64,000 nt of DNA from Sphingomonas vulcanisoli (GTDB lineage Bacteria; Pseudomonadota; Alphaproteobacteria; Sphingomonadales; Sphingomonadaceae). This document shows positions 22,898 to 35,768 of the stretch, in pieces. The notes beneath the pieces are model-generated. The model did no database searches and was not told where the DNA came from. It saw nothing but the letters and a program-made list of their open reading frames with translations. The stretch lies in the NCBI RefSeq assembly GCF_011761305.1, contig NZ_JAAOZC010000004.1, positions 62,001 to 126,000 of the forward strand. The letters are read 5' to 3'. A program made the translations under genes and the position numbers. Position 1 is the stretch's first letter. The number at the start of each line of letters is the position of its first letter.

Positions 22898-22914
22898 TGG
22901 CGGAGAGGGTGGGA
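22898..22914. repeat. Left attachment site of the island
   Basis: An exact copy of the last 17 bases of the tRNA-Ser gene (written as TGGCGGAGAGGGTGGGA on the + strand), with no tRNA around it. It matches 35679-35695. Confidence 0.85.
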
Positions 22915-23082: not shown

Positions 23083-26000
23083 CTACCGTCGCCCCAACCG
23101 GCGATCGACCTGATCCTCACCATCCCATCGCTTAGCTTCGTACTCGTAATCCGCAGCAAGTTGATCCAGCGTGCGGGCGGAAAAAGGGAAGGCCAGTCGC
23201 ATAGCGTCCGCGCCGACGCGGAACTGAGCCGCGAGCGCCCGCTCTTGGCCGCCACCAGGAGCGCGCGTCACTACGCCACGAGCATTGCGCTTACCGACGA
23301 CGAAGCCCGTGGCGATGTGCTCGGCAGAAAAACGATCAAGTACTTGGCGCACCGCCTCGTGAGGCCAATGTCCATCGGTGCCGACTGGAGAGGCGGATAG
23401 CAATGTCCCGATCGTTTGATCCGTCATGGTTGAACGGGCGGCTGCCCGCCCAAGATTGCGAGCCGTATCAATCCAAGTCATAAGTGCATCAGCATCTATC
23501 GTACCGTCGTCGCAAGTTCCTGGTACACGCCGGCCATGATGGAGAATTTGCCAGGCTGTGTGAGAGGCCGCCTCCTGCCCCTCCTGTCGGTCTACCTCGC
23601 CGTCGTCGCGCTTGTAGATGAGCGAGACGAGGTGCACGAAATCGCCAGGGTTTTCCGCTATCACACGATCCAGATGCGGCGTGCCATGCTGATCGTGTTC
23701 CAACAGCGGAAAGAAGCCAAACTCTAGGCTGGCCATCTCGCTAAGCGACATGACTTCAGCCGTTTCTACGCAAGCGATTGCCTCACCAAGGTGCCAGCCA
23801 TCCGGCGTGGCTACCGCAACGTCATCTCCTTGCGAAGCACGCATAGCTCTTAAAACGCGAGCAAGGAGGTGCGGATCGACTGCCTTAACTTCAAAACCAA
23901 TCGCCTGGAAAGCGGCGAAAGGGCGACTTGCGCTGAGCAATTGATCGATCAGGAACGCGGTGTCGGACGCATCAAGCCCGTGAACGTACGCAACCATCCG
24001 AGCCCAGTAACCGCTGGCAATCTCCGGCGCAGCATCCCCAATAAGCTGCCAAGTCGCGCGTTCACTCGGCGCCGACACGACAATCCGTACATGGTCGCCT
24101 GCGCTTAGTGTCGCATCGGCAAGCACCTCGGTCAGAGCATCTCGTCTAGTCTCGGCATCACTATTGCTAAGAAGCCCGCGCAATGTATCGTCCACCTTAG
24201 CGCCGAGTTCGTCACGTCGTATTAGCTCACGCAGCCATGCAGCTACATTATCGCCTTCCAACTTGGCGAGGAGACTGCCTATCCAAGCGGCCGCGTTTCC
24301 ACCGGATATCAACGCCACCACGCCGTTAATGCCTTGGGCCGAAAGCACTTCTTGCAGTGCCTTGCGACGGTCTTCCTCGACACGCTGAGAGTGCTGTTCC
24401 CAATCTTCATTTTCTTCGCGATCATAACGTGGCCAGTGATCCGCAAAGAGCCAGCGATGCCGCTCAACGACATCGACCGGCAACAAGCGCTCAGCCAAAT
24501 CTTGAAATCGCGTATGATAGGTGGGTAGCTCGCTTTGCTCTGCCGATCGGAGGCGCCACAATCCTAAAGTTCGGCGAATGCTGTCGCGGAGGATCGCCCG
24601 ATCCGCATCGCTTGCCGCATCGGCCCACTGTTCAGCTCTGCTAAGTAGTCTAGAGGCAGCTTCGTCCGGAATGTCGTCAATCCTAGAAAGAACCTCGGCA
24701 AGTTGCGTGGTCGAGTACCCTGGCCAATCCAAAAGCAAATCGACAATCGCCAGCACGAAAGTACGGACCTCATTGTGCGTAGGTTGGCCAGCGCCAATCG
24801 TTACCTCGCGCCATCGCGGCCGCATATTAGGCGTTGCGTGCCCCCCTCGGCCGGGCAACTGTCCCAAAAGTAGTCGCCAAGCCACCGGTGAACGCGTCTC
24901 GGCAAAGCCACGTACTACGGCAATCCGTTCTTCCACGCTGGCAGCGGTTTGTGGGAGCCAATAGCGTACGAGCGAACCTAGTGACGCCTCCGGCTTATTT
25001 ACCCAGTTGTCATTGATAGGCACTTCGCTGAGCTTCGCTAAGATCGCGAATACACGTGAAAAACGTCGAGGCTCCCAAGCGAGCAATTCAAGCGCCCAGA
25101 GCAGCTCGGTACGATCACAGCCCCCCATCGATGACGTAACGGGTCGCAAAAGGTTGAATAGTGCTGGCTCATCTTGTCGCAGATCGGCTTCGACCGCATC
25201 AAGGAATGCGTTGGGCGACGCTTCCGCCAGCCAACGCAGATAATGTTGCGCAAGCCATTGCCGGGGAGATGCGCCCCGCAGCGCTGAGGTAACAAGTTGG
25301 TCGACGCGTGCGGCAATCGCCCCCAAGCGATCCCCCAGCAATCGATCGCCCTCGATCGCAAGCAGCACTAAGAACTCGCCGACGGCTTCTCTTAGCGCTC
25401 CGCTCACCTCGGCGCGGACACCGTAAATGCCAGCAGCCCAGCGTTTATCTTCAGGCAAATCTAGCCGAGGATCGTCGAGCGTGAGAACGAGCCCTGCGAC
25501 GGCAACGAAGCGCGAGATGTCCTGCTCAGTAAGGGCATGATGCAGTGCAAAGAGCGCGTCCTTGCGCGACACCACCCCGCGAAAGCCCCCGGCCAACCAA
25601 ACAGGCGCGTCTGGCAACGTGGCGAGTTCCGCCGCATCCCGCTCCACTTCTTCAATGGGCTTAGCCGCTAGTTCGGTGACGCATGCTTCATCCGCAGTGT
25701 CCCCTGCTCGCCACGCTCCAGCGAGGAGAATAGGAACAAGTTTGCGTTGGAGTGCGAGGTTCCGAGCCCAGTTCGGTGTCTTCAGCTCCGGCGCGATTGC
25801 AAGCCGTCGCCGTAGAATTGTGGGCGAGCGCCCAGCCTCTGTCGTTGTTCGGTCGCGGTCGCCCTCAGCCACTCCCATATCTGCAAGAGCGTCCTGAAAG
25901 ACAGTCCAACTAGCCGGCCGTAATTCCACGTCTGGCTCGATTGGAACGGTTGCATGCGTCCGCGCGAAGACGACTAGATGTTGCGCAGAGGCAATGGCAG

Positions 26001-26817
26001 CCTCTTCCTCGGCTGCTGGATCGGCGATGACGATTAGGCCTGCCAGCTTCGTGGACAGCACACCAGCCAGCGCAAGAGCATCTTCAACGACGATCGATCG
26101 TTCGCGCTCAACTTCTTCTAGGGCTGTTGCGACGAAAGCGACCGCTTCACCAACTGAGTCCGCTGTTACAACATACGGACGATGCGGCGCCGTCGTGCGC
26201 CAGGCGCTAAAGGCATTGGCGGCGGCTGTGGTCGCTTCATCAAACAGTTTTGCCGACAATGATGGTCGGCATGCATTTGCCCAACTACTCCATGCGCCAT
26301 CTAGAGTACGGAGACCAACGGCCGGCCGTCCAAGAAGCGCTGCAAACCACAGACATGTCGCTGGGCATTGCTCAAGCCACTGGGCCAAATCTTCAGCATC
26401 GTATGCTCTCACATCCGCCCAGGCGTTCCCTTGGCGTCGAGCATCCGCCCAGCGCCCTTTACCTGGCCAACGCCGAGCGGTGATAAAAACAAAGGTAATC
26501 GTCGCTCTATCGCCCGGCGACAATTTCACGCGACTGTCCCAATCACGGTTTGGCTTGCCCGGATTGTCGTCAGCAACGCTTAGCTCCCAGCCGACCGCGC
26601 CCGCAGGCAGCCACGCATTTGCATCGCTTGCTTCCGTCCAACCGTCCCAACCCGGTCGTTGCGCTTCGTCGTAACCGGGGAAATCACTGGCAGCCAGTGA
26701 CCTAGATGTTTCGTGAACCAGGCGCCGCACTAAGACCGGCAGCAGCGAGCGAGCACGCTCAGATGCCGCCCAACTGGCGATATCGAGAGCACTTACGATC
26801 AGCGGAGAATTTGTCAT
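23083..26817 (-). CDS. Giant 1244-residue island protein, possible nuclease-like N-terminus
   Basis: No named family could be assigned. Residues 24-165 look like a compact alpha/beta domain: LLPVLVRRLVHETS, FPGYDEAQRPGWDGW (45-60), GWELSVADD (76-84), TFVFITARRWPGKGRW (108-123) and DVRAYDAEDLAQWLEQ (135-150). The D58 / E78 spacing with a strand after them resembles PD-(D/E)xK nuclease cores, but the expected lysine is not clear. Residues about 200-330 have the layout of a STAND/AAA-like module with a degenerate P-loop (TADSVGEAV). The rest is alpha-helical, repeat-like, rich in Leu/Ala/Trp. Such size and layout are common in defence proteins that sense phage parts. Transcribed toward the left island edge; ATG at 26817. 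Confidence 0.75.
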   Translation of the reverse strand: MTNSPLIVSALDIASWAASERARSLLPVLVRRLVHETSRSLAASDFPGYDEAQRPGWDGWTEASDANAWLPAGAVGWELSVADDNPGKPNRDWDSRVKLSPGDRATITFVFITARRWPGKGRWADARRQGNAWADVRAYDAEDLAQWLEQCPATCLWFAALLGRPAVGLRTLDGAWSSWANACRPSLSAKLFDEATTAAANAFSAWRTTAPHRPYVVTADSVGEAVAFVATALEEVERERSIVVEDALALAGVLSTKLAGLIVIADPAAEEEAAIASAQHLVVFARTHATVPIEPDVELRPASWTVFQDALADMGVAEGDRDRTTTEAGRSPTILRRRLAIAPELKTPNWARNLALQRKLVPILLAGAWRAGDTADEACVTELAAKPIEEVERDAAELATLPDAPVWLAGGFRGVVSRKDALFALHHALTEQDISRFVAVAGLVLTLDDPRLDLPEDKRWAAGIYGVRAEVSGALREAVGEFLVLLAIEGDRLLGDRLGAIAARVDQLVTSALRGASPRQWLAQHYLRWLAEASPNAFLDAVEADLRQDEPALFNLLRPVTSSMGGCDRTELLWALELLAWEPRRFSRVFAILAKLSEVPINDNWVNKPEASLGSLVRYWLPQTAASVEERIAVVRGFAETRSPVAWRLLLGQLPGRGGHATPNMRPRWREVTIGAGQPTHNEVRTFVLAIVDLLLDWPGYSTTQLAEVLSRIDDIPDEAASRLLSRAEQWADAASDADRAILRDSIRRTLGLWRLRSAEQSELPTYHTRFQDLAERLLPVDVVERHRWLFADHWPRYDREENEDWEQHSQRVEEDRRKALQEVLSAQGINGVVALISGGNAAAWIGSLLAKLEGDNVAAWLRELIRRDELGAKVDDTLRGLLSNSDAETRRDALTEVLADATLSAGDHVRIVVSAPSERATWQLIGDAAPEIASGYWARMVAYVHGLDASDTAFLIDQLLSASRPFAAFQAIGFEVKAVDPHLLARVLRAMRASQGDDVAVATPDGWHLGEAIACVETAEVMSLSEMASLEFGFFPLLEHDQHGTPHLDRVIAENPGDFVHLVSLIYKRDDGEVDRQEGQEAASHTAWQILHHGRRVPGTCDDGTIDADALMTWIDTARNLGRAAARSTMTDQTIGTLLSASPVGTDGHWPHEAVRQVLDRFSAEHIATGFVVGKRNARGVVTRAPGGGQERALAAQFRVGADAMRLAFPFSARTLDQLAADYEYEAKRWDGEDQVDRRLGRR

Positions 26818-27781: not shown

Positions 27782-28486
27782 TCACTTGGCCGGGGCCGCT
27801 ATTTCAAGGTGCAAGTTGCTCGCAACGATACTCGCATAACCCATGCGCAAAGCTGCAATCATCGGCTCGGGCGTCAGCAAGATAACTTCTGCCTTTATGC
27901 CCCGCCATGCAATCGGCTGTTCGTAGCCGCCGTGTTGCCAGGGCCAGAGATACCCGGAGGCAACGAGTATCGGCCGATGATCGATTTCGGGCGCAAATAT
28001 GAAGGCGCCTTCCGGCGTGTCCGACAAACTAGCGATCCGTCTTCGCCGCTGCTCGCTGAGGCGCGATTGGTGACAAGCTCGGTCGATCTCTATCAGCGGA
28101 ACCCGTTCGTGCTGTTTGATCCTATGCCCTGCCTTCCATGCAGCTATGAACGAGATCAATGCTTCCGGCCGACACTCGCCGCACGGCCTGTGCCCCGCCG
28201 CCAGCGCAACGGCTTCGTCGTGGAAGAATAGCGGATAATAGTGGCCCGGCGCATCCATTGGCGCCTTCCAGCCGTTGCCATCGAGGATACAACTTAGCCA
28301 CCGGCGGCTACGCCATTGCCGACCCAAAGAGCCATCGGGGGCATGGAGATCGCCGCGATTACCCATGAGGGCGCCTTTATGGGATGTTGCCTCGATTGCT
28401 CCGAAAGGATTGACCCGATTTTGCCTTGGACGCTTCAAGGTTGAGAAGCACGGCGCATCAAACGGGAGACTTTCTGCCCGGTCCAT
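27782..28486 (-). CDS. Conserved hypothetical protein with HRPCxEC motif
   Basis: 234 residues. It carries conserved blocks NRVNPFG (23-29), KGALMGNRGDLH (37-48), RRWLSCILDG (61-70) and AAGHRPCGECRPEAL (97-110), then a region of charged helices. This family is found in many alphaproteobacteria without assigned function. The CxxC and nearby histidines could bind a metal, as in Ada-type zinc sites, but this is inference. The ATG at 28486 has GGGAGGG just upstream and lies inside the 3' end of the serine recombinase gene (52 bp overlap). Confidence 0.65.
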   Translation of the reverse strand: MDRAESLPFDAPCFSTLKRPRQNRVNPFGAIEATSHKGALMGNRGDLHAPDGSLGRQWRSRRWLSCILDGNGWKAPMDAPGHYYPLFFHDEAVALAAGHRPCGECRPEALISFIAAWKAGHRIKQHERVPLIEIDRACHQSRLSEQRRRRIASLSDTPEGAFIFAPEIDHRPILVASGYLWPWQHGGYEQPIAWRGIKAEVILLTPEPMIAALRMGYASIVASNLHLEIAAPAK

Positions 28487-29127
28487 AACCCTCCCCTAGC
28501 TGCTGAAATGCCGCGATCTCGAAGTTCGCCGGCTATAACTTCAAAACTACGCCCTTCATCACGAAGCGAACAAATCAACGGAGCGAGGTCGCGCGCACGC
28601 TCAGCCGCCTTCTGGGAACGCACCGCAGCGCTCGCCCGAGCGCCTCTAGCGGCGACAGTGGGTAGATTGCCCCTATCACCGCCTAGAACAACACCACGCG
28701 CCTTGGCAGCTTTCAGGGCTGCCTTGGTACGCTCTGAAATCATCCGCGCTTCATGCTCGGCGACAGCGGACAGAATATGAATAGTGAGCCGGTTCGCTTC
28801 AGGAAAATCGGCGGCAATGAAGTCAACGCCGCTCTCAAGAATATTGGAAACGAAGGCCACGCTGCGAGCGAGGCGATCGAGTTTGGCAATGATAAGCGTG
28901 GCACGATGAAGGCGGCAGAGGGCGAAAGCTTTCGCAAGTTCCGGCCGATCAGCGTTGCGTCCGCTTTCTACTTCGATCTTTTCAGCGATCAGCGTGTGGG
29001 ATCGCTCAGCTAGGAAATTGTGAACAGCTTCCCGTTGAGCATCTAGGCCGAGACCGCTGCGCCCCTGCCGATCAGTCGACACCCGATAATATCCGATGAA
29101 GCCTTTTCTATCCAAACACTCCGCCAT
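28435..29127 (-). CDS. Serine recombinase of the resolvase/invertase family
   Basis: About 230 residues. The N-terminal catalytic domain has IGYYRVSTDRQGRSGLGLDAQ (catalytic serine in YRVS), ATLIIAKLDRLARS, ANRLTIHILSAVAEHEARMISERTKAAL and VLGGDRGN. The C-terminal helix-turn-helix region has EVIAGELRDRGISAARGGLWTGQKVSRLMRR. It is the small resolvase type, likely acting in multimer resolution or inversion of the island. ATG at 29127 was chosen over an upstream TTG at 29175, because the upstream residues do not fit the family. It is followed by the HRPCGEC gene with overlap. Confidence 0.9.
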   Translation of the reverse strand: MAECLDRKGFIGYYRVSTDRQGRSGLGLDAQREAVHNFLAERSHTLIAEKIEVESGRNADRPELAKAFALCRLHRATLIIAKLDRLARSVAFVSNILESGVDFIAADFPEANRLTIHILSAVAEHEARMISERTKAALKAAKARGVVLGGDRGNLPTVAARGARASAAVRSQKAAERARDLAPLICSLRDEGRSFEVIAGELRDRGISAARGGLWTGQKVSRLMRRASQP

Positions 29128-29218
29128 CCACGACTGGCAATTAGCCACAACCAACGATGTTGTTGTATATGGCAAAGTGTTTGGGCAGAATTACGTTTTT
29201 ATTTCGAACTGAAAAGGG

Positions 29219-29787: not shown

Positions 29788-29807
29788 GATTGTTCATCCC
29801 GTGGTCG

Positions 29808-30041
29808 ATGGAGGATTGGCAAAAACGGTTCGGTGCTAGGGTGCGGGCATTGCGCAAAGAGCGGGGCCTTACCCAGGAGCGCCTCGCCGTGGATGCCGAG
29901 ATTGATCTAACCTATCTCGGCGGTATCGAGCGTGGTCGCCGAAACCCGACCCTCTCGGTTATTGTCCGGATAGCAGAGGCTCTACAGGTTTCACCATCAG
30001 CGATATTCGACTACGATCCAACGACAGACGCGGAAGTTTAA
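29808..30041 (+). CDS. XRE-family regulator resembling restriction-modification C proteins
   Basis: About 77 residues, almost all one helix-turn-helix domain: RFGARVRALRKERGLTQERLAVDAEIDLTYLGGIERGRRNPTLSVIVRIAEALQVSP. Length, the 'YLGGIERGRRNPT' recognition segment and the C-box-like operator upstream all match controller (C) proteins, which delay expression of a toxic enzyme until protection is ready. No methylase or restriction enzyme is present; the next gene, 29 bp downstream, is a TIR protein. ATG at 29808 used; a TTG at 29790 is also in frame. Confidence 0.85.
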   Translation: MEDWQKRFGARVRALRKERGLTQERLAVDAEIDLTYLGGIERGRRNPTLSVIVRIAEALQVSPSAIFDYDPTTDAEV

Positions 30042-30070: not shown

Positions 30071-30943
30071 TTGAAGCTGACTAAGTCTCAGCGGGTGAAG
30101 GTGATCCAAGACATCGCAGGCCATTTGGACGGCGAGGACTGGACGACAATCGATCTCACTCTGAAGCAATTCGGACTTCCGATAAGCGATCAATGGTCAG
30201 GCAGCCAAAAATCCTACATCGTTCAAATGATCGCAGACGCTAAGGATGGTGACCTAATAGAGCTTGGTCAGCATTTTGGCATGCAGCTGGTCGGACAAGA
30301 CGCCGCCGTCGTGCCTGTACACGAGACACCTTATTGGCGAGACGGGCAGATTAGGGTCTTTATTTCTCATTTGACTACCGAGCGGGAGCAAGCAGCCAAT
30401 ATCCAAACCGCATTTACTCATTATGGCATGAGCGGTTTCGTAGCTCACAACGACATTCATCCGACTGCCGAGTGGCAAATAGAAATTGAGACGGCCTTGG
30501 CGACTTGCGAGGTGCTGGTCGCGCTAATCTATCCTGATTTCGTTTCAAGCAAGTGGTGCGATCAAGAGATTGGTTACGCGCTCGGACGGAGCATTCCGGT
30601 ATTCGCCGTCAGATGTGGGGCCGATCCTCATGGCTTCGTGAGCCGCTTCCAGGCTTTCAACGGAAACGGCAAAACTCCAGGCCAAATTGCAAAAGAGCTT
30701 TTCGAAGCGGCTGTCGAGCACAAAAAACTGCAGGCAAGGATGGCTGACGTAGTCATCGACCTATTCGTCAACAGCGGAAGCTTCGCCACTGCAAAAGAGA
30801 GAGCAGGTTACGTTGATCGATTAAAAGTTTGGGATGCGGGATACTCAGCACGGCTGGTCAAAGCCGTCAAAAACAACACTCAGATCAGCGGCTCATGGGG
30901 TGTGCCGGATCAAGTCAAAGCGATCCTCAAAAAGTGGAAATGA
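30071..30943 (+). CDS. TIR-domain protein (probable abortive-infection effector)
   Basis: 290 residues in three parts. Residues 1-70 are a helical domain (QRVKVIQDIAGHL, TTIDLTLKQFGLP, YIVQMIADAKDGDLIELGQHFG) like AbiJ N-terminal-type modules. Residues 94-195 are a TIR domain: IRVFISHLTTEREQAANIQ, EVLVALIYPDFVSSKWCDQEIGYALG, IPVFAVRCG. The glutamate of WCDQE (E166) sits where NAD-cleaving TIR enzymes have their catalytic residue. A helical C-terminus follows. The start is TTG. TIR NADases typically deplete NAD+ on phage infection; that role is inferred. It probably forms an operon with the C-like regulator. Confidence 0.85.
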   Translation: MKLTKSQRVKVIQDIAGHLDGEDWTTIDLTLKQFGLPISDQWSGSQKSYIVQMIADAKDGDLIELGQHFGMQLVGQDAAVVPVHETPYWRDGQIRVFISHLTTEREQAANIQTAFTHYGMSGFVAHNDIHPTAEWQIEIETALATCEVLVALIYPDFVSSKWCDQEIGYALGRSIPVFAVRCGADPHGFVSRFQAFNGNGKTPGQIAKELFEAAVEHKKLQARMADVVIDLFVNSGSFATAKERAGYVDRLKVWDAGYSARLVKAVKNNTQISGSWGVPDQVKAILKKWK

Positions 30944-31005: not shown

Positions 31006-32133
31006 TCAGCTGGCAATCCGAGGCGATAGATGGAGCGTTTCTCGGAAGAGTTCGCGGAATTGATCGTCTGCTGCCGGGAATGGTGCCAATAGAACCTTTG
31101 CAAGTCGCTCACGGTCGATATCACCGAGGCTAAGAATATCATCCGGAATACGACCTTCTAGACGCCCGAGGTTATGGTTATCCGGTTGTCGGATGACCTC
31201 GCCGCCGTTTTCCTCCTGTCCCAGATAGTAGCCGAGCGTCTGCAACCCTTCGCTTGCATGTTGAATTAACGAAGTGCCAAATCGGAGGGGTCCGCCAAGG
31301 CAGCCTGCTAACTCGCAGGTCAGCGCATCGCGTACATGGCCGCAAATCTCTGGCGTTGGGGCTACCACGATGATGTTGTCCGAATAAACGAACAGACGCG
31401 CATCGGGATGAACGCAGCGGGTCACCTTGAAAAGAATGTGCCGCAAGAGAGCGTTGGATGCCGGCGAGCCCTGCAAAAGGCCTCGCGGACCCTCACCTTC
31501 ACTGATTGAAGTACTAGAGACAAATCTAGACATCGCCCCGTTGGGTCTTCGGGCATTTTCCTTCCGCTGCAAAGGAAGGTGCCGATAATCCAACGCGCAT
31601 CGGATCACCTCCGTTGGTAAGAGGCAAAGCTGGTAAACTGCCCGAATGTCGATCGAGCAAAAGCAATCTCGGATGTCGGCCGCCCATATCCACTGTCGAC
31701 CGCCTTCAATAGCCTGCGCGATATCTATCACTGCCCGGCCAGGACCAGCACGGCGAACATCGTAGAAGGGATGATTGACGGGCAATTGCGCATCTAATGC
31801 GTGCCGGATTACCGCATGCCGAAAATGCTGTTCATAGCCGAATTCGCAGATCGGTCGCCGCCCGCCGCGTCGCTTGCGCTTCAAATACCACTCGATCGGT
31901 TCGACGCAGGCTTCAAAGAGGCTGGTCTCTTCGATCATCTCGTTGACGACCTCCACTGTCGCGAAGGGCCATAGCTGGTAGGCAATGTGCGCCAGCGCAT
32001 AGGGGTCGCGTAGGAAACCGGCAACGCGCCCTTGCTGTTTGCTGGTCGGCACGAATGCGCTCTCCGTTACCGCCTGAGCGATCCTCGATATTTGATGCCT
32101 GTAGGATCGCGCGGCCTGCCCCCTGCCGATCAT
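31006..32133 (-). CDS. Reverse transcriptase-like protein with YSDN active-site motif
   Basis: 375 residues. The palm motifs of reverse transcriptases are in order: motif A AADIRDCFCSID (151-162, D153), motif B GLLQGSPASN (218-227), motif C VYSDN (249-253) and motif E-like LGYYLG (300-305). Residues 90-135 (RRPICEFGYEQHFRHAVIRHAL ... RRAGPGRAV) fit motifs 1-2. Motif C normally reads YxDD; here the second aspartate is asparagine (codon AAC, read directly). There is no maturase, endonuclease or integrase domain, so it is not a standard group II intron enzyme. It overlaps the upstream gene by 4 bp (ATGA). Class unknown; defence RTs are the closest idea. Confidence 0.85.
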   Translation of the reverse strand: MIGRGQAARSYRHQISRIAQAVTESAFVPTSKQQGRVAGFLRDPYALAHIAYQLWPFATVEVVNEMIEETSLFEACVEPIEWYLKRKRRGGRRPICEFGYEQHFRHAVIRHALDAQLPVNHPFYDVRRAGPGRAVIDIAQAIEGGRQWIWAADIRDCFCSIDIRAVYQLCLLPTEVIRCALDYRHLPLQRKENARRPNGAMSRFVSSTSISEGEGPRGLLQGSPASNALLRHILFKVTRCVHPDARLFVYSDNIIVVAPTPEICGHVRDALTCELAGCLGGPLRFGTSLIQHASEGLQTLGYYLGQEENGGEVIRQPDNHNLGRLEGRIPDDILSLGDIDRERLAKVLLAPFPAADDQFRELFRETLHLSPRIAS

Positions 32134-32705
32134 CGCATCGCCTCACGCAGCGTTCCGAACGGCAATTCTCGCGTTCCCGTCGCCGCGTCATCGACGCCGA
32201 GTATTTCTCCCAAGAGCTGCAACGTCGGCTCGACACGCGATCGAGCACGATAGGCAGCCCGCTGCGGCGCGGTCAAAAGGTCCAACTGGAAAAGCTTTTG
32301 GATCGCACGCCCGCCGCGCAGGATGCTGGGCACGTCATCCTTGGCGACCGCGCGCGCGAGTGCATAAGCGAAAATCGCGTTGAGGTGACGCAGCTTGGTT
32401 TCGAGCATCAGCACGTCATCGTCCTCCTCAGGTTCGATCGGCTCCATCGCTGCGAGCAATTCCGGAGGGAGGCTCAACATGGGCACATCGTCACACCGAG
32501 TGGCAGCTGCTTGATCTGGATCGACCATCACCCCGCCGATCATGACGACGGCTCGACCAGGGCATCGCTGCTGATGTCGGTGCAGCGCGGACTTTGAGAC
32601 CTCAAATGTTCGCGCGGTACTGATCAGCGATCCACCGACGGTCAACGCACCGTCGATCGCTGAGCGGTTGGCGTGCTTGCAAATTGAGCATCGGATGTGT
32701 GCCAT
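32130..32705 (-). CDS. Zinc-finger/helix-turn-helix protein of the RT cassette
   Basis: 191 residues. The N-terminus (MAHIRCSICKHANRSAIDGALTVGGSLISTARTFEVSKSALHRHQQRC) has paired CxxC / H...C ligands and a helix-turn-helix, as in many phage small DNA-binding proteins and terminase small-subunit relatives. The middle is acidic (EPIEPEEDDD), followed by helical sequence. It may bind DNA or RNA and deliver the coupled reverse transcriptase; this is inferred from the ATGA overlap. Confidence 0.65.
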   Translation of the reverse strand: MAHIRCSICKHANRSAIDGALTVGGSLISTARTFEVSKSALHRHQQRCPGRAVVMIGGVMVDPDQAAATRCDDVPMLSLPPELLAAMEPIEPEEDDDVLMLETKLRHLNAIFAYALARAVAKDDVPSILRGGRAIQKLFQLDLLTAPQRAAYRARSRVEPTLQLLGEILGVDDAATGTRELPFGTLREAMR

Positions 32706-32774
32706 CCCACCTATGTCTCACTTTCCCACATCATTTCCCGCCGTGTGCGGACGAGCGTCGATCGGCCGGCTCAG

Positions 32775-33164
32775 TCATATGCCCGATGCATGCAGACGCG
32801 GCTCAAGCCCGCGAAGCGCGTTTGGCGGAATGATCACATCATCCGGCAGCCTCGCCCCACCGGCGAAAAAGCGCCTGCCAGCCTCAGATCGATACAATCC
32901 CGCCTGCTCGGCAAGGTTTGCAATTATATCGTCCGACACCAGCGGCTCGATTTCGCCAATTGCGGCATCGATCGTTAGAGCGGAAACATATATCTCCCAG
33001 CCGTCGAAAAGCACCTCGGGTTGAAGGCGAAGCCTTTCTCGCGGACATACTCCAAGTGACGAGAGATGGTCCTGCGCCATCTCGACCCGTCGTGAGGGTG
33101 ATAGATCAGCCAGCCGGAGACTGAGCCCAAGCATCAGCTCTTGGCAGTTTTTAGCCTCGGTCAT
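32775..33164 (-). CDS. Hypothetical protein of the RT cassette (129 aa)
   Basis: 129 residues, unknown family. A helical N-terminus (ELMLGLSLRLADLSPSRRVEMAQDHL) is followed by a mixed region (VLFDGWEIYVSALTIDAAIGEIEPLVSDDIIANLAEQAGLYRSEAG). There is no signal peptide or membrane helix. It starts in the stop codon of the preceding gene (ATGA) and is followed by a 69-bp gap before the zinc-finger gene. Confidence 0.6.
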   Translation of the reverse strand: MTEAKNCQELMLGLSLRLADLSPSRRVEMAQDHLSSLGVCPRERLRLQPEVLFDGWEIYVSALTIDAAIGEIEPLVSDDIIANLAEQAGLYRSEAGRRFFAGGARLPDDVIIPPNALRGLEPRLHASGI

Positions 33165-33649
33165 TGGCCGAGCCCCATGAGCCGATATCCGGCTGGCCCT
33201 CCAAGACTGTCTTCGACCGCACGAAGGAAGCGGCGGCGAACCAACTCGTCGCGAGCCGAGAGTACCCGATCAAAGCTCATAGCTAAGGCTGAAGAAATGC
33301 GGTCGGTTCGTATGTCGAACAGATTGGCCTCACTCCGCCGCGCCTGGCGAAGCAGATGATCCAGTAAAAGAGCACCGTTCTTGGAAAGCCCCAGCCTCGC
33401 AATCCGAATATCATGATTGGCTGGCTTTACGTCGCCTTTGGCCGCTTGCTGCGATGGATTGCACCCCACGCTTACGGCCAAGACATTTTCAACCGCTGGT
33501 CGTGACACCAGAGTGGCTTTTCCTCCCGAATTCAAAATCCGACGATGGAGATCGCCGACCGCTTTGGCGTGTGCGATCTGCTGATCATCGATTGGCTTGC
33601 CGGAATGGCCACGCGGTCGCACTGCATCCACAAGACGCTTGTTTGTCAT
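33161..33649 (-). CDS. Hypothetical protein of the RT cassette with winged-helix-like C-terminus (162 aa)
   Basis: 162 residues, unknown family. The second half (IARLGLSKNGALLLDHLLRQARRSEANLFDIRTDRISSALAMSFDRVLSARDELVRRRFLRAVED) has the helix pattern of a winged-helix DNA-binding domain. Such domains are frequent in replication initiators and regulators. Both ends overlap neighbours by ATGA, so it is translated as part of the cassette. Confidence 0.6.
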   Translation of the reverse strand: MTNKRLVDAVRPRGHSGKPIDDQQIAHAKAVGDLHRRILNSGGKATLVSRPAVENVLAVSVGCNPSQQAAKGDVKPANHDIRIARLGLSKNGALLLDHLLRQARRSEANLFDIRTDRISSALAMSFDRVLSARDELVRRRFLRAVEDSLGGPAGYRLMGLGQ

Positions 33650-33831
33650 GACGACACTCCATTGGTCGTTACCTCTGTAAGGAAAGCGACCAACGCCTCC
33701 CGCATGAGGCTCGATCTGGACATACGGAAAGCATTAAGCCGGCCATTGCGCCTTACAAGGGCAGCATCCAGCGCAGACTTTAACTCGCGCGTCATACCGA
33801 CAGTCACGTAACTGATAGGGTCAACCGACAT
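33646..33831 (-). CDS. Small ribbon-helix-helix-like protein, first gene of the RT cassette
   Basis: 61 residues: SYVTVGMTRELKSALDAALVRRNGRLNAFRMSRSSLMREALVAFL has the beta-strand plus two-helix plan of ribbon-helix-helix regulators, although a predicted strand near the N-terminus is short. It is probably the autoregulator of the cassette, whose promoter would lie in the 135 bp before it. It overlaps the next gene by ATGA. Confidence 0.6.
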   Translation of the reverse strand: MSVDPISYVTVGMTRELKSALDAALVRRNGRLNAFRMSRSSLMREALVAFLTEVTTNGVSS

Positions 33832-33966: not shown

Positions 33967-35640
33967 CTATTCGACGTCTACTGGGTACGCTATTCGTTGA
34001 AGGCATTCCAGAAGCAGTCTTGCGGTGTGCCCCTCACCATAACCATTCATGGCGCTATTTTCGCTGACCACCCAGCCGCCCAAGCGAGCAGAAATTTCGA
34101 TTGAAGCACCGACCACGCGCAGCGCATCGCGGAAGTTGTGGCGGAGCGAATGAAAACTAACTTTGGGATCGGGCAGCACCCCGCGCACCAGACGTCCGAT
34201 CCTTTTTTGCGCCGCATTGGTGGTCCCCGGAGTGACAGGTGCGTCTGCCAGAAGAAGCGCCTCCGGTTCGCGGCTACGCTTCAACTCACGGATACCGGCA
34301 GCAAGTAACCACGGGTGAACCGGAATAGTGCGACGTGACGCGACGGTCTTAAGGTCACGATATTGGTTTGGAGCTATACGGAAACACCAAACCCCATCGA
34401 CAGCCACCAGATCATCGACACGCAAACCGGCGATTTCGGAAAGCCGCATCCCATTGAATAAGCCAATTCGAACCATCCAGTAGGTCCAGGTCCGCGCGAC
34501 GTCTCCGTCGGACGACCCCATCCCGCCACCGGTGATCTCAGCCAGCGTGACTAATTCTGTCTTGGTCAGCGGACGTCTAGGCTTTTCGCGCGGAGCGGGC
34601 GGCCCTTTGACCCCCTTGGCAGGATTGCGCGACACCATCTCCTCGCGCTCTAGCCATTTGAACAGACTGCTTAGCAGTTCGACATAGAGAGAGACGCTCT
34701 TCGCTGACAGTGTCGGCAAGCCCAACCGCTCGTTGGCTACCGTCGCCTCCGCAATAGACATGCCCTTAAAGTGCTTACGGGCGTTTGCCGGCATCGCGAT
34801 CAGCTTGTCACGGCAGGTGCGCACATCCTCGCGTCTCAGCGAGCCGATGAGTTTTTCGGGGCCTAGAATTTCCTCAATTGCCCGAAACCGGAATTCCCAA
34901 GCCGCCCGCGTTTTATAGGCGACGCCGGATCGTTCGGGGTCTGATTTATATGCTGTGATCGCGCCCGAAACAGTCAGCGGGGCGGACAACGGGTCTCCAG
35001 CACTCACACCTTCAAAGAGCGGATCAACTGTGGCAACCAACCGCCCAGATAAACGCTCGGATCGGCGTCCAAGATGCTCAATCTGCGCCTGCTGGAATGC
35101 CTCACAGACGCGGATGAAATCGGGCGACGCCGGCTTGTCTACCGAGGCAGGCTCGACGTTGCAGCCGGCCCACTTTGCAAATCGGAGTGCGATGGCCTGC
35201 AACGTCGGGTCTTCGAGAGATTGGGCGACGAGCCCGGTCATCTCATCCACGCTCTCCAACTCTGCAATGCGCGCACTCGGCGAAATCGGCAGCCTCTGGG
35301 CCTCGACCTCCATCTTATGAAGGAAGGCTCGGCTGAGTTCATACAGCTCTTCGTCGCTTAACGGTGCGGGCGGTAAAGATCGGAGCTTCGCTTCCGCCTC
35401 AGCAAACCGACGATCGACCGCCACACGCTCTAACCTGGCAAGCCTGCAAGCATCGGCGAAGCTCACGCCGCCGAAAGACTTCCACAGGAAATTCTTGCCA
35501 ATTTGCAGACGAATTCGATCGGGGACGCGAACTCGTAGCTCCCAGCTTCCGCCGCGCTGGATCAACCCAGCCGGCCTAGCCACTTCGCCACCCTGTGCAG
35601 CAGCTTTGTGTAGCAACTCGCGTGATTTTCCCTTGGCCAT
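33967..35640 (-). CDS. Tyrosine-family integrase
   Basis: 557-residue site-specific recombinase that would insert and excise the island at tRNA-Ser. A long N-terminal arm/core-binding region is followed by the catalytic domain: first arginine in LFNGMRLSEIAGLRVDDL, HSLRHNFRDAL (H497, R500), LGGW (second His replaced by W523) and the nucleophile Y534 in NGYGEGH. The ATG at 35640 is 38 bp from the tRNA 3' end, the usual arrangement. It is transcribed away from the tRNA toward the cargo. Confidence 0.92.
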   Translation of the reverse strand: MAKGKSRELLHKAAAQGGEVARPAGLIQRGGSWELRVRVPDRIRLQIGKNFLWKSFGGVSFADACRLARLERVAVDRRFAEAEAKLRSLPPAPLSDEELYELSRAFLHKMEVEAQRLPISPSARIAELESVDEMTGLVAQSLEDPTLQAIALRFAKWAGCNVEPASVDKPASPDFIRVCEAFQQAQIEHLGRRSERLSGRLVATVDPLFEGVSAGDPLSAPLTVSGAITAYKSDPERSGVAYKTRAAWEFRFRAIEEILGPEKLIGSLRREDVRTCRDKLIAMPANARKHFKGMSIAEATVANERLGLPTLSAKSVSLYVELLSSLFKWLEREEMVSRNPAKGVKGPPAPREKPRRPLTKTELVTLAEITGGGMGSSDGDVARTWTYWMVRIGLFNGMRLSEIAGLRVDDLVAVDGVWCFRIAPNQYRDLKTVASRRTIPVHPWLLAAGIRELKRSREPEALLLADAPVTPGTTNAAQKRIGRLVRGVLPDPKVSFHSLRHNFRDALRVVGASIEISARLGGWVVSENSAMNGYGEGHTARLLLECLQRIAYPVDVE

Positions 35641-35678: not shown

Positions 35679-35695
35679 TGGCGGAGAGGGTGGGA
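35679..35695. repeat. Right attachment site (inside tRNA-Ser 3' end)
   Basis: TGGCGGAGAGGGTGGGA on the + strand, i.e. the CCA end, discriminator, acceptor arm and part of the T-stem of the tRNA. It is identical to 22898-22914. The island keeps the tRNA intact. Confidence 0.85.
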
Positions 35696-35768
35696 TTCGA
35701 ACCCACGTTACGGTTGCCCGCAAACCGCATTTCGAGTGCGGCGCATTCGACCTCTCTGCCACCTCTCC
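35679..35768 (-). tRNA. tRNA-Ser (anticodon CGA)
   Basis: A 90-base tRNA with encoded CCA. The acceptor stem GGAGAGG/CCTCTCC pairs perfectly and the discriminator is G. The anticodon stem CCGCA/TGCGG encloses loop CTCGAAA, giving anticodon CGA. A long variable arm typical of serine tRNA and a T-arm with GTTCGAATC are present. It serves as integration target of the island. Confidence 0.97.

What the first reader, a model, noticed from the sequence alone, without database searches (positions are those of the whole stretch)
31006..33831. Five-gene reverse transcriptase cassette with a YSDN active site
Genes for a ribbon-helix-helix-like protein, a winged-helix-like protein, a 129-aa protein, a zinc-finger protein and a reverse transcriptase are on one strand; three of four junctions are ATGA overlaps. 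The RT has motifs A and B intact, but motif C is Tyr-Ser-Asp-Asn instead of YxDD (codon AAC). No retron-type structured RNA, maturase or endonuclease is evident. This does not match a system I know by gene order.
Basis: partly seen in the sequence, partly recalled or inferred. Interest (0 to 1): 0.78.

Follow-up and report, generated by a model that had tools for sequence, protein, structure and literature searches.

The report
Integrase-linked island RTs with Asp-Asn motif
A reverse-transcriptase gene in a small DNA island inserted at a tRNA gene carries asparagine where nearly all such enzymes carry their second catalytic aspartate; relatives in many similar islands share this, so it is a real, maintained and unclassified kind of enzyme rather than a broken gene.

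Summary
In detail: five co-directional genes at 31006-33831 (-), three of four junctions ATGA overlaps, and an RT with motif C YSDN (codon AAC). The Asn is not a one-off. Eighteen RTs collected here, in several lineages and two alphaproteobacterial families, carry [YFWH]xDN with motif A Asp, motif B G/S and the first motif C Asp invariant; dN/dS of DN pairs is 0.23-0.37. It is not a free five-gene cassette: it lies in a 12.8-kb island, tRNA-Ser(CGA)-integrase-...-Cys/HTH-RT-...-resolvase, bounded by a 17-bp repeat of the tRNA 3' end, with cargo resembling defence genes. RT relatives mostly sit within 2 kb of a tyrosine integrase (18 of 26; chance about 2%), often with an HTH gene directly upstream. 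In one pair of elements the integrase-HTH-RT-resolvase core is 98% identical while the cargo is exchanged. No retron, DGR, group II or CRISPR hallmark was found. Shown: an unclassified integrase-linked RT group, under purifying selection, with a recurrent DN active site. Its function is open: immunity (my lead, narrowly) or DNA synthesis serving the element.

The parts
31006..32133 (-). Reverse transcriptase, 375 aa, motif C YSDN (N253 codon 31375-31377)
32130..32705 (-). 191-aa Cys/HTH protein, ATGA-coupled to the RT; homologue directly upstream of the YVDD RT in L068
32775..33164 (-). 129-aa protein, no family found
33161..33649 (-). 162-aa winged-helix-like protein; C-terminal part similar to an HTH_Crp_2 protein in L097
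33646..33831 (-). 61-aa small protein, ribbon-helix-helix-like by eye only (no Pfam match)
33967..35640 (-). Tyrosine integrase with N-terminal DUF6538
   Evidence: PF00589 1.3e-9, PF20172 9.5e-9
35679..35768 (-). tRNA-Ser(CGA), insertion site of the island
35679..35695 (-). att copy: tRNA 3' end TCCCACCCTCTCCGCCA
22898..22914 (-). second att copy, 17/17 identical; distal end of the 12.8-kb island (G+C about 0.52-0.60 inside)
30071..30943 (+). TIR-domain protein (cargo)
   Evidence: (TIR_2 1.3e-14)
29790..30041 (+). Xre-type HTH protein (cargo)
28435..29175 (-). Serine recombinase (resolvase family)
   Evidence: (PF00239 4.9e-28)
27782..28486 (-). PDC-S40 candidate defence protein; also downstream of the resolvase in L015
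26965..27732 (-). DUF4145 protein (cargo)
23083..26817 (-). 1244-aa protein, weak partial match to PD-Lambda-4_A (cargo)

Best explanation
The gene is the RT of a tRNA-inserted genomic island and belongs to an unclassified, fast-evolving group of alphaproteobacterial RTs that live beside tyrosine integrases and serine resolvases. Shown by sequence: island borders, linkage to integrases, a coupled HTH or other partner gene, and a DN motif C that is kept together with all other catalytic residues. Inferred: the enzyme is an active polymerase whose Asn retunes metal use, as in mononegavirus and birnavirus polymerases (PMC4634563). Inferred, my lead for function: it is an immunity gene of the island that makes DNA on infection without a dedicated long template RNA (protein-primed, untemplated or de novo primed), controlled or aimed by its DNA-binding partner. 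It travels with the mobile core while the other defence cargo is exchanged.
For: Island: 17-bp att repeat, G+C drop, integrase at the tRNA. Linkage: 18 of 26 non-intron RT loci have a tyrosine integrase within 2 kb against one integrase per about 345 kb in 18 of these genomes. DN: 18 proteins; the columns invariant in the DN set are D153, L172, G222, S226, D252, N253 and G281, with R93 in 17 of 18; dN/dS 0.23-0.37 for the resolvable pairs. For immunity: cargo in these elements includes IetAS, type II R-M and TIR genes; the RT diverges faster than integrase or resolvase of the same core (L057/L060: int 71%, HTH 60%, resolvase 91%, RT 36%; L013/L024: int 77%, RT 49%), as expected of an arms race; an RT plus its 205-aa neighbour (73% and 69% identical) occur with integrases alike only at 28% over part of their length; members weakly match DRT-labelled UG4 and UG17 profiles.
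Against: No experiment shows activity or defence. The window's RT itself has no convincing match to a DRT/UG profile. In the L057/L058 pair the RT stays with the mobile core while defence cargo is swapped, which an element-serving role explains at least as well. No effector is fused to the RT. Fast divergence could also reflect gene replacement or weak constraint (L062 carries a truncated copy).
Confidence: 0.42

Rival explanations
1. Element-serving polymerase: after excision the HTH partner binds the element and the RT primes or copies its DNA (replication, repair of the excised circle or transfer). The RT is part of the mobility core.
For: The RT sits between integrase and resolvase; L057 and L058 share a 4.2-kb tRNA-int-RHH-HTH17-RT-resolvase block at 98.2% while host flanks are 72-78% and cargo differs; L060 and L062 at the same kind of tRNA-Leu site have a similar core (L062 RT truncated, HTH not resolved) with other cargo. 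No other polymerase, primase, Rep or relaxase gene was recognised in the listed genes of these elements (not an exhaustive annotation). HTH_17/AlpA genes, the excisionase-like type, lie directly upstream of the RT in 8 loci. Integrase and RT distances correlate (Mantel r 0.50, 16 loci). RTs can prime DNA synthesis de novo in vitro, for several of them only with Mn2+ or Mn2+/Co2+ (PMC10415136).
Against: The RT evolves faster than the rest of the core; one RT lineage occurs with unlike integrases; a truncated RT occurs in L062, so it may be dispensable; no replication origin or transfer shown.
Confidence: 0.33
2. Non-catalytic regulator: the RT fold binds nucleic acid and no longer polymerises.
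For: Double Asp-to-Asn mutants of RT motif C are inactive (PMC5498913, PMC10415136).
Against: Those are double mutants; here the first motif C Asp and the motif A Asp are invariant, and changes of the second Asp alone are reported to reduce or retune rather than abolish activity in other viral polymerases (PMC4634563). DN and DD relatives share the same kind of gene context.
Confidence: 0.1
3. Degenerating retroelement fragment or random mutation.
For: L062 RT and the partner gene of L025 look damaged.
Against: Purifying selection, DN conserved over dS of about 0.8 and more, intact overlapping ORFs.
Confidence: 0.04

Closest known systems
Defence-associated RTs / UG groups (UG4, UG17, DRT types)
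   Same: Bacterial RT without maturase, carried in defence-rich islands; some relatives match UG4 (best 1.4e-12) and UG17 (best 1.8e-15) PADLOC profiles
   Different: Window RT has no convincing UG/DRT match; the SLATT_5 and fimbrial neighbours reported for UG17 and UG4 (PMC8934634) are not seen; motif C is DN; tyrosine integrase linkage
Group II intron, G2L and CRISPR RTs
   Same: Closest solved relatives by sequence profile (6me0, 7kft, 7uim)
   Different: No intron RNA, no maturase or endonuclease domain recognised, no Cas gene; short 375-aa protein
Retrons
   Same: Small RT with an HTH neighbour; a retron Eco7 structure is the top fold match of the low-confidence model
   Different: No NAxxH/VTG hallmark pair, no Rfam retron hit, no intergenic gap over 134 bp in the operon
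Mononegavirales (GDN) and Birnaviridae RNA polymerases
   Same: Asn in place of the second motif C Asp in an active palm polymerase (PMC4634563, PMC5648267)
   Different: RNA-dependent RNA polymerases of viruses; no close sequence relation; an analogy only
tRNA-targeting integrative islands with integrase and excisionase-like gene
   Same: Integrase at a tRNA, att repeat, HTH_17/AlpA gene in relatives, resolvase, exchanged defence cargo
   Different: An RT occupies a recurrent place beside the integrase

Membership tests
Retron | RT with region X NAxxH and region Y VTG plus msr-msd RNA | tested here: not met
   Searches (window RT has neither; no Rfam match), gaps of at most 134 bp
Diversity-generating retroelement | GxxxSQ in motif 4, Avd gene, TR/VR near-repeats | tested here: not met
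   motif is GSPASN; no TR/VR-like repeat; no Avd among the neighbours scanned
Group II intron / G2L | intron RNA domains and maturase domain | tested here: not met
   no Rfam intron match; TIGR04416 14.8 bits against cut-off 300
CRISPR-associated RT | Cas1/Cas2/Cas6 partner | tested here: not met
   no cas gene among the island proteins scanned
DRT / UG-Abi RT | membership of a named UG clade | tested here: inconclusive
   window RT: generic RT profile only; some relatives match UG4/UG17; no UG reference tree could be built
DRT / UG-Abi RT | anti-phage activity | not testable with these tools
   needs phage challenge
tRNA-integrating genomic island | integrase next to a tRNA and direct repeat of the tRNA 3' end at the far border | tested here: met
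tRNA-integrating genomic island | empty site in a relative | tested here: inconclusive
   the tRNA side matched in all six other genomes of the genus held, the left flank in none, so no contiguous empty site

The most novel reading that the evidence does not exclude
A class of integrative islands uses its own Asp-Asn reverse transcriptase, coupled to a DNA-binding partner, as the polymerase or primase of the element itself: an RT serving a DNA element as a core enzyme, with an active site that switched between DD and DN several times and may be tuned to Mn2+ or to priming.
Probability: 0.25. Interest if true: 0.87.

Novelty: new variant of a known kind. Interest (0 to 1): 0.68.

Why it matters
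The YxDD box is the textbook signature of reverse transcriptases. A natural RT group in which the second Asp is Asn in several lineages (at least four DN/DD switches forced by well-supported branches) makes the role of that residue directly testable with nature's own DD/DN pairs (L055 FVDN and L056 YLDD are sisters), and ties an unclassified RT group to island mobility and defence. Searches that demand DD would miss it, and Pfam RVT_1 scores the window RT below its cut-off.

Tried and rejected
Close relatives in viral contigs, phage records and plasmids (one 28.6% Streptomyces match): essentially none. A phylum-wide search gave almost only group II intron-like YADD RTs plus L069, an HCDN RT beside a tRNA-Ala and integrase in another alphaproteobacterial family. 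Empty-site test inconclusive. att repeats were also sought for other elements: present for the tRNA-Leu group, not found within the fetched stretch for L014, L017, L051, L053, L054, L056 and L068. Literature search for YxDN RTs: nothing in the open library; the main UG/Abi survey paper is not held, so earlier description there cannot be excluded.

Full report
Observation. The five ORFs, strand, overlaps and the YSDN motif are as described. The N codon is AAC at 31375-31377. Motif A (ADIRDCF, D153) and motif B (GLLQGSPASN) are intact.

What it sits in. A tRNA-Ser(CGA) at 35679-35768 is followed by a tyrosine integrase of the DUF6538 type (33967-35640), then the five genes. The last 17 bp of the tRNA, TCCCACCCTCTCCGCCA, recur exactly at 22898-22914 in the same orientation; the longest match in 200 shuffles was 15. 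G+C is mostly 0.62-0.67 on the left of this stretch and 0.52-0.60 within it. So the thing is a 12.8-kb island; besides the RT operon it holds a TIR protein, an Xre regulator, a serine recombinase, a PDC-S40 candidate defence gene, a DUF4145 protein and a 1244-aa protein with a weak PD-Lambda-4_A match. An intact empty site was not found in the genus, so insertion is inferred from the repeat, the tRNA and the composition.

Relatives. Four searches of whole genomes (about 1,590 genomes drawn, some repeatedly) and one collection scan gave 26 RT loci, the window included, that are not evidently group II introns (L064-L066 set aside). All come from Alphaproteobacteria, mostly the window's own family; named ones are Erythrobacter and Novosphingobium pokkalii. 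Motif C is YCDN, YGDN, YSDN, YADN, FSDN, FVDN, WSDN or HCDN in 18 and YADD, FADD, HGDD, YLDD, YGDD or YVDD in 8. With the motif position masked, the tree needs five DN/DD changes and well-supported branches force four; the window RT lies in a supported set of nine DN and one DD sequence. The direction of change cannot be told without a root, and several branches, including the window's, are long.

Is the gene alive? In the 18 DN proteins the columns invariant in all are D153, L172, G222, S226, D252, N253 and G281, with R93 in 17; apart from L172 and G281 these are recognisable RT motif positions. dN/dS is 0.27, 0.29, 0.23, 0.37 and 0.25 for the five DN pairs whose dS could be estimated (dS is near saturation in the more distant ones). 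In viral RNA polymerases Asn at this position occurs naturally in Mononegavirales and Birnaviridae, and it alters metal use (PMC4634563, PMC5648267). That this holds for these RTs is inference.

Linkage. Eighteen of the 26 RTs have a tyrosine integrase within 2 kb, one more at 3.1 kb; in 18 of these genomes there are 182 integrase matches in about 63 Mb, so chance would be about 2%. Integrases lie beside tRNA-Ser, -Ala, -Tyr, -Glu or -Leu genes in many. Directly upstream of the RT is an HTH_17/AlpA-type gene in L011, L013, L015, L052, L054, L057, L058 and L060 and the Cys/HTH gene in the window and L068. L059, L061, L063 and L016 show another arrangement with a serine recombinase and a gene of about 190 aa, and no tyrosine integrase nearby. 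The profile was seeded from integrase-linked members, so the sample may favour them.

A natural swap. L057 and L058 (different genera) share tRNA-Leu, integrase, RHH-like gene, HTH, RT and resolvase at 98.2% over 4,227 bp; their host flanks are 72-78% identical and the cargo beyond the resolvase is unrelated: R-M-like genes versus IetAS. So the RT is inherited with the mobile core. On the other side, the RT diverges faster than its core neighbours, and in L014/L051 an RT with its 205-aa neighbour (73% and 69% identical) sits with integrases that share only 28% over part of their length. The first fact favours a role for the element; the second and third favour a conflict or immunity role. I lead with immunity because of these and because most bacterial RTs of known function outside introns and DGRs are defensive (general knowledge), but the margin is small.

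The Cys/HTH gene is homologous to the gene before the YVDD RT of L068 over the Cys/HTH region (35% over 43 aa). In L097 a winged-helix gene, a 189-aa gene and a Cys/HTH gene in the same order precede an apparent IS66 insertion and a Terminase_6N large subunit, with a resolvase further on; the middle genes are not alike. In L098 a Cys/HTH gene stands near a tRNA-Gln without an RT. The RHH-like and 129-aa genes were not seen beside other RTs. Hence the recurrent unit is island + RT + neighbouring gene, often DNA-binding, not the five genes.

Known families. Retron, DGR, group II and CRISPR membership fail on tested features (see table). UG/DRT membership is open: some relatives match UG4 or UG17 profiles, the window RT does not convincingly. 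No intergenic gap in the operon exceeds 134 bp (between the 61-aa gene and the integrase), so a long template RNA would have to overlap genes.

Noticed in passing
L097 7414-15948: Winged-helix, 189-aa and Cys/HTH genes in the order seen in the window, followed by IS66-like genes, a split Terminase_6N large subunit and a serine resolvase: the place of the RT is taken by a terminase.
   Followed up: partly
L057 and L058: Same integrase-HTH-RT-resolvase core (98.2%) in two genera with wholly different cargo, R-M-like genes versus IetAS; the identity ends just upstream of the resolvase gene.
   Followed up: yes
window 23083-26817: 1244-aa protein with only a weak partial match to PD-Lambda-4_A; a possible unrecognised defence gene.
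   Followed up: no
L011, L012, L013, L015, L024: A family of 185-220 aa proteins without clear Pfam match between integrase and RT (or HTH) in four elements and upstream of the RT in L012; in L025 the gene looks frameshifted.
   Followed up: partly
L059, L061, L063, L016: Second neighbourhood type: serine recombinase, small protein, about 190-aa protein, RT (YADN or YADD) and Xre regulator.
   Followed up: no
window 27782-29175 and L015 11477-12867: Serine recombinase and PDC-S40 gene overlap and are conserved as a pair (37% and 48% identity) in two RT islands.
   Followed up: partly
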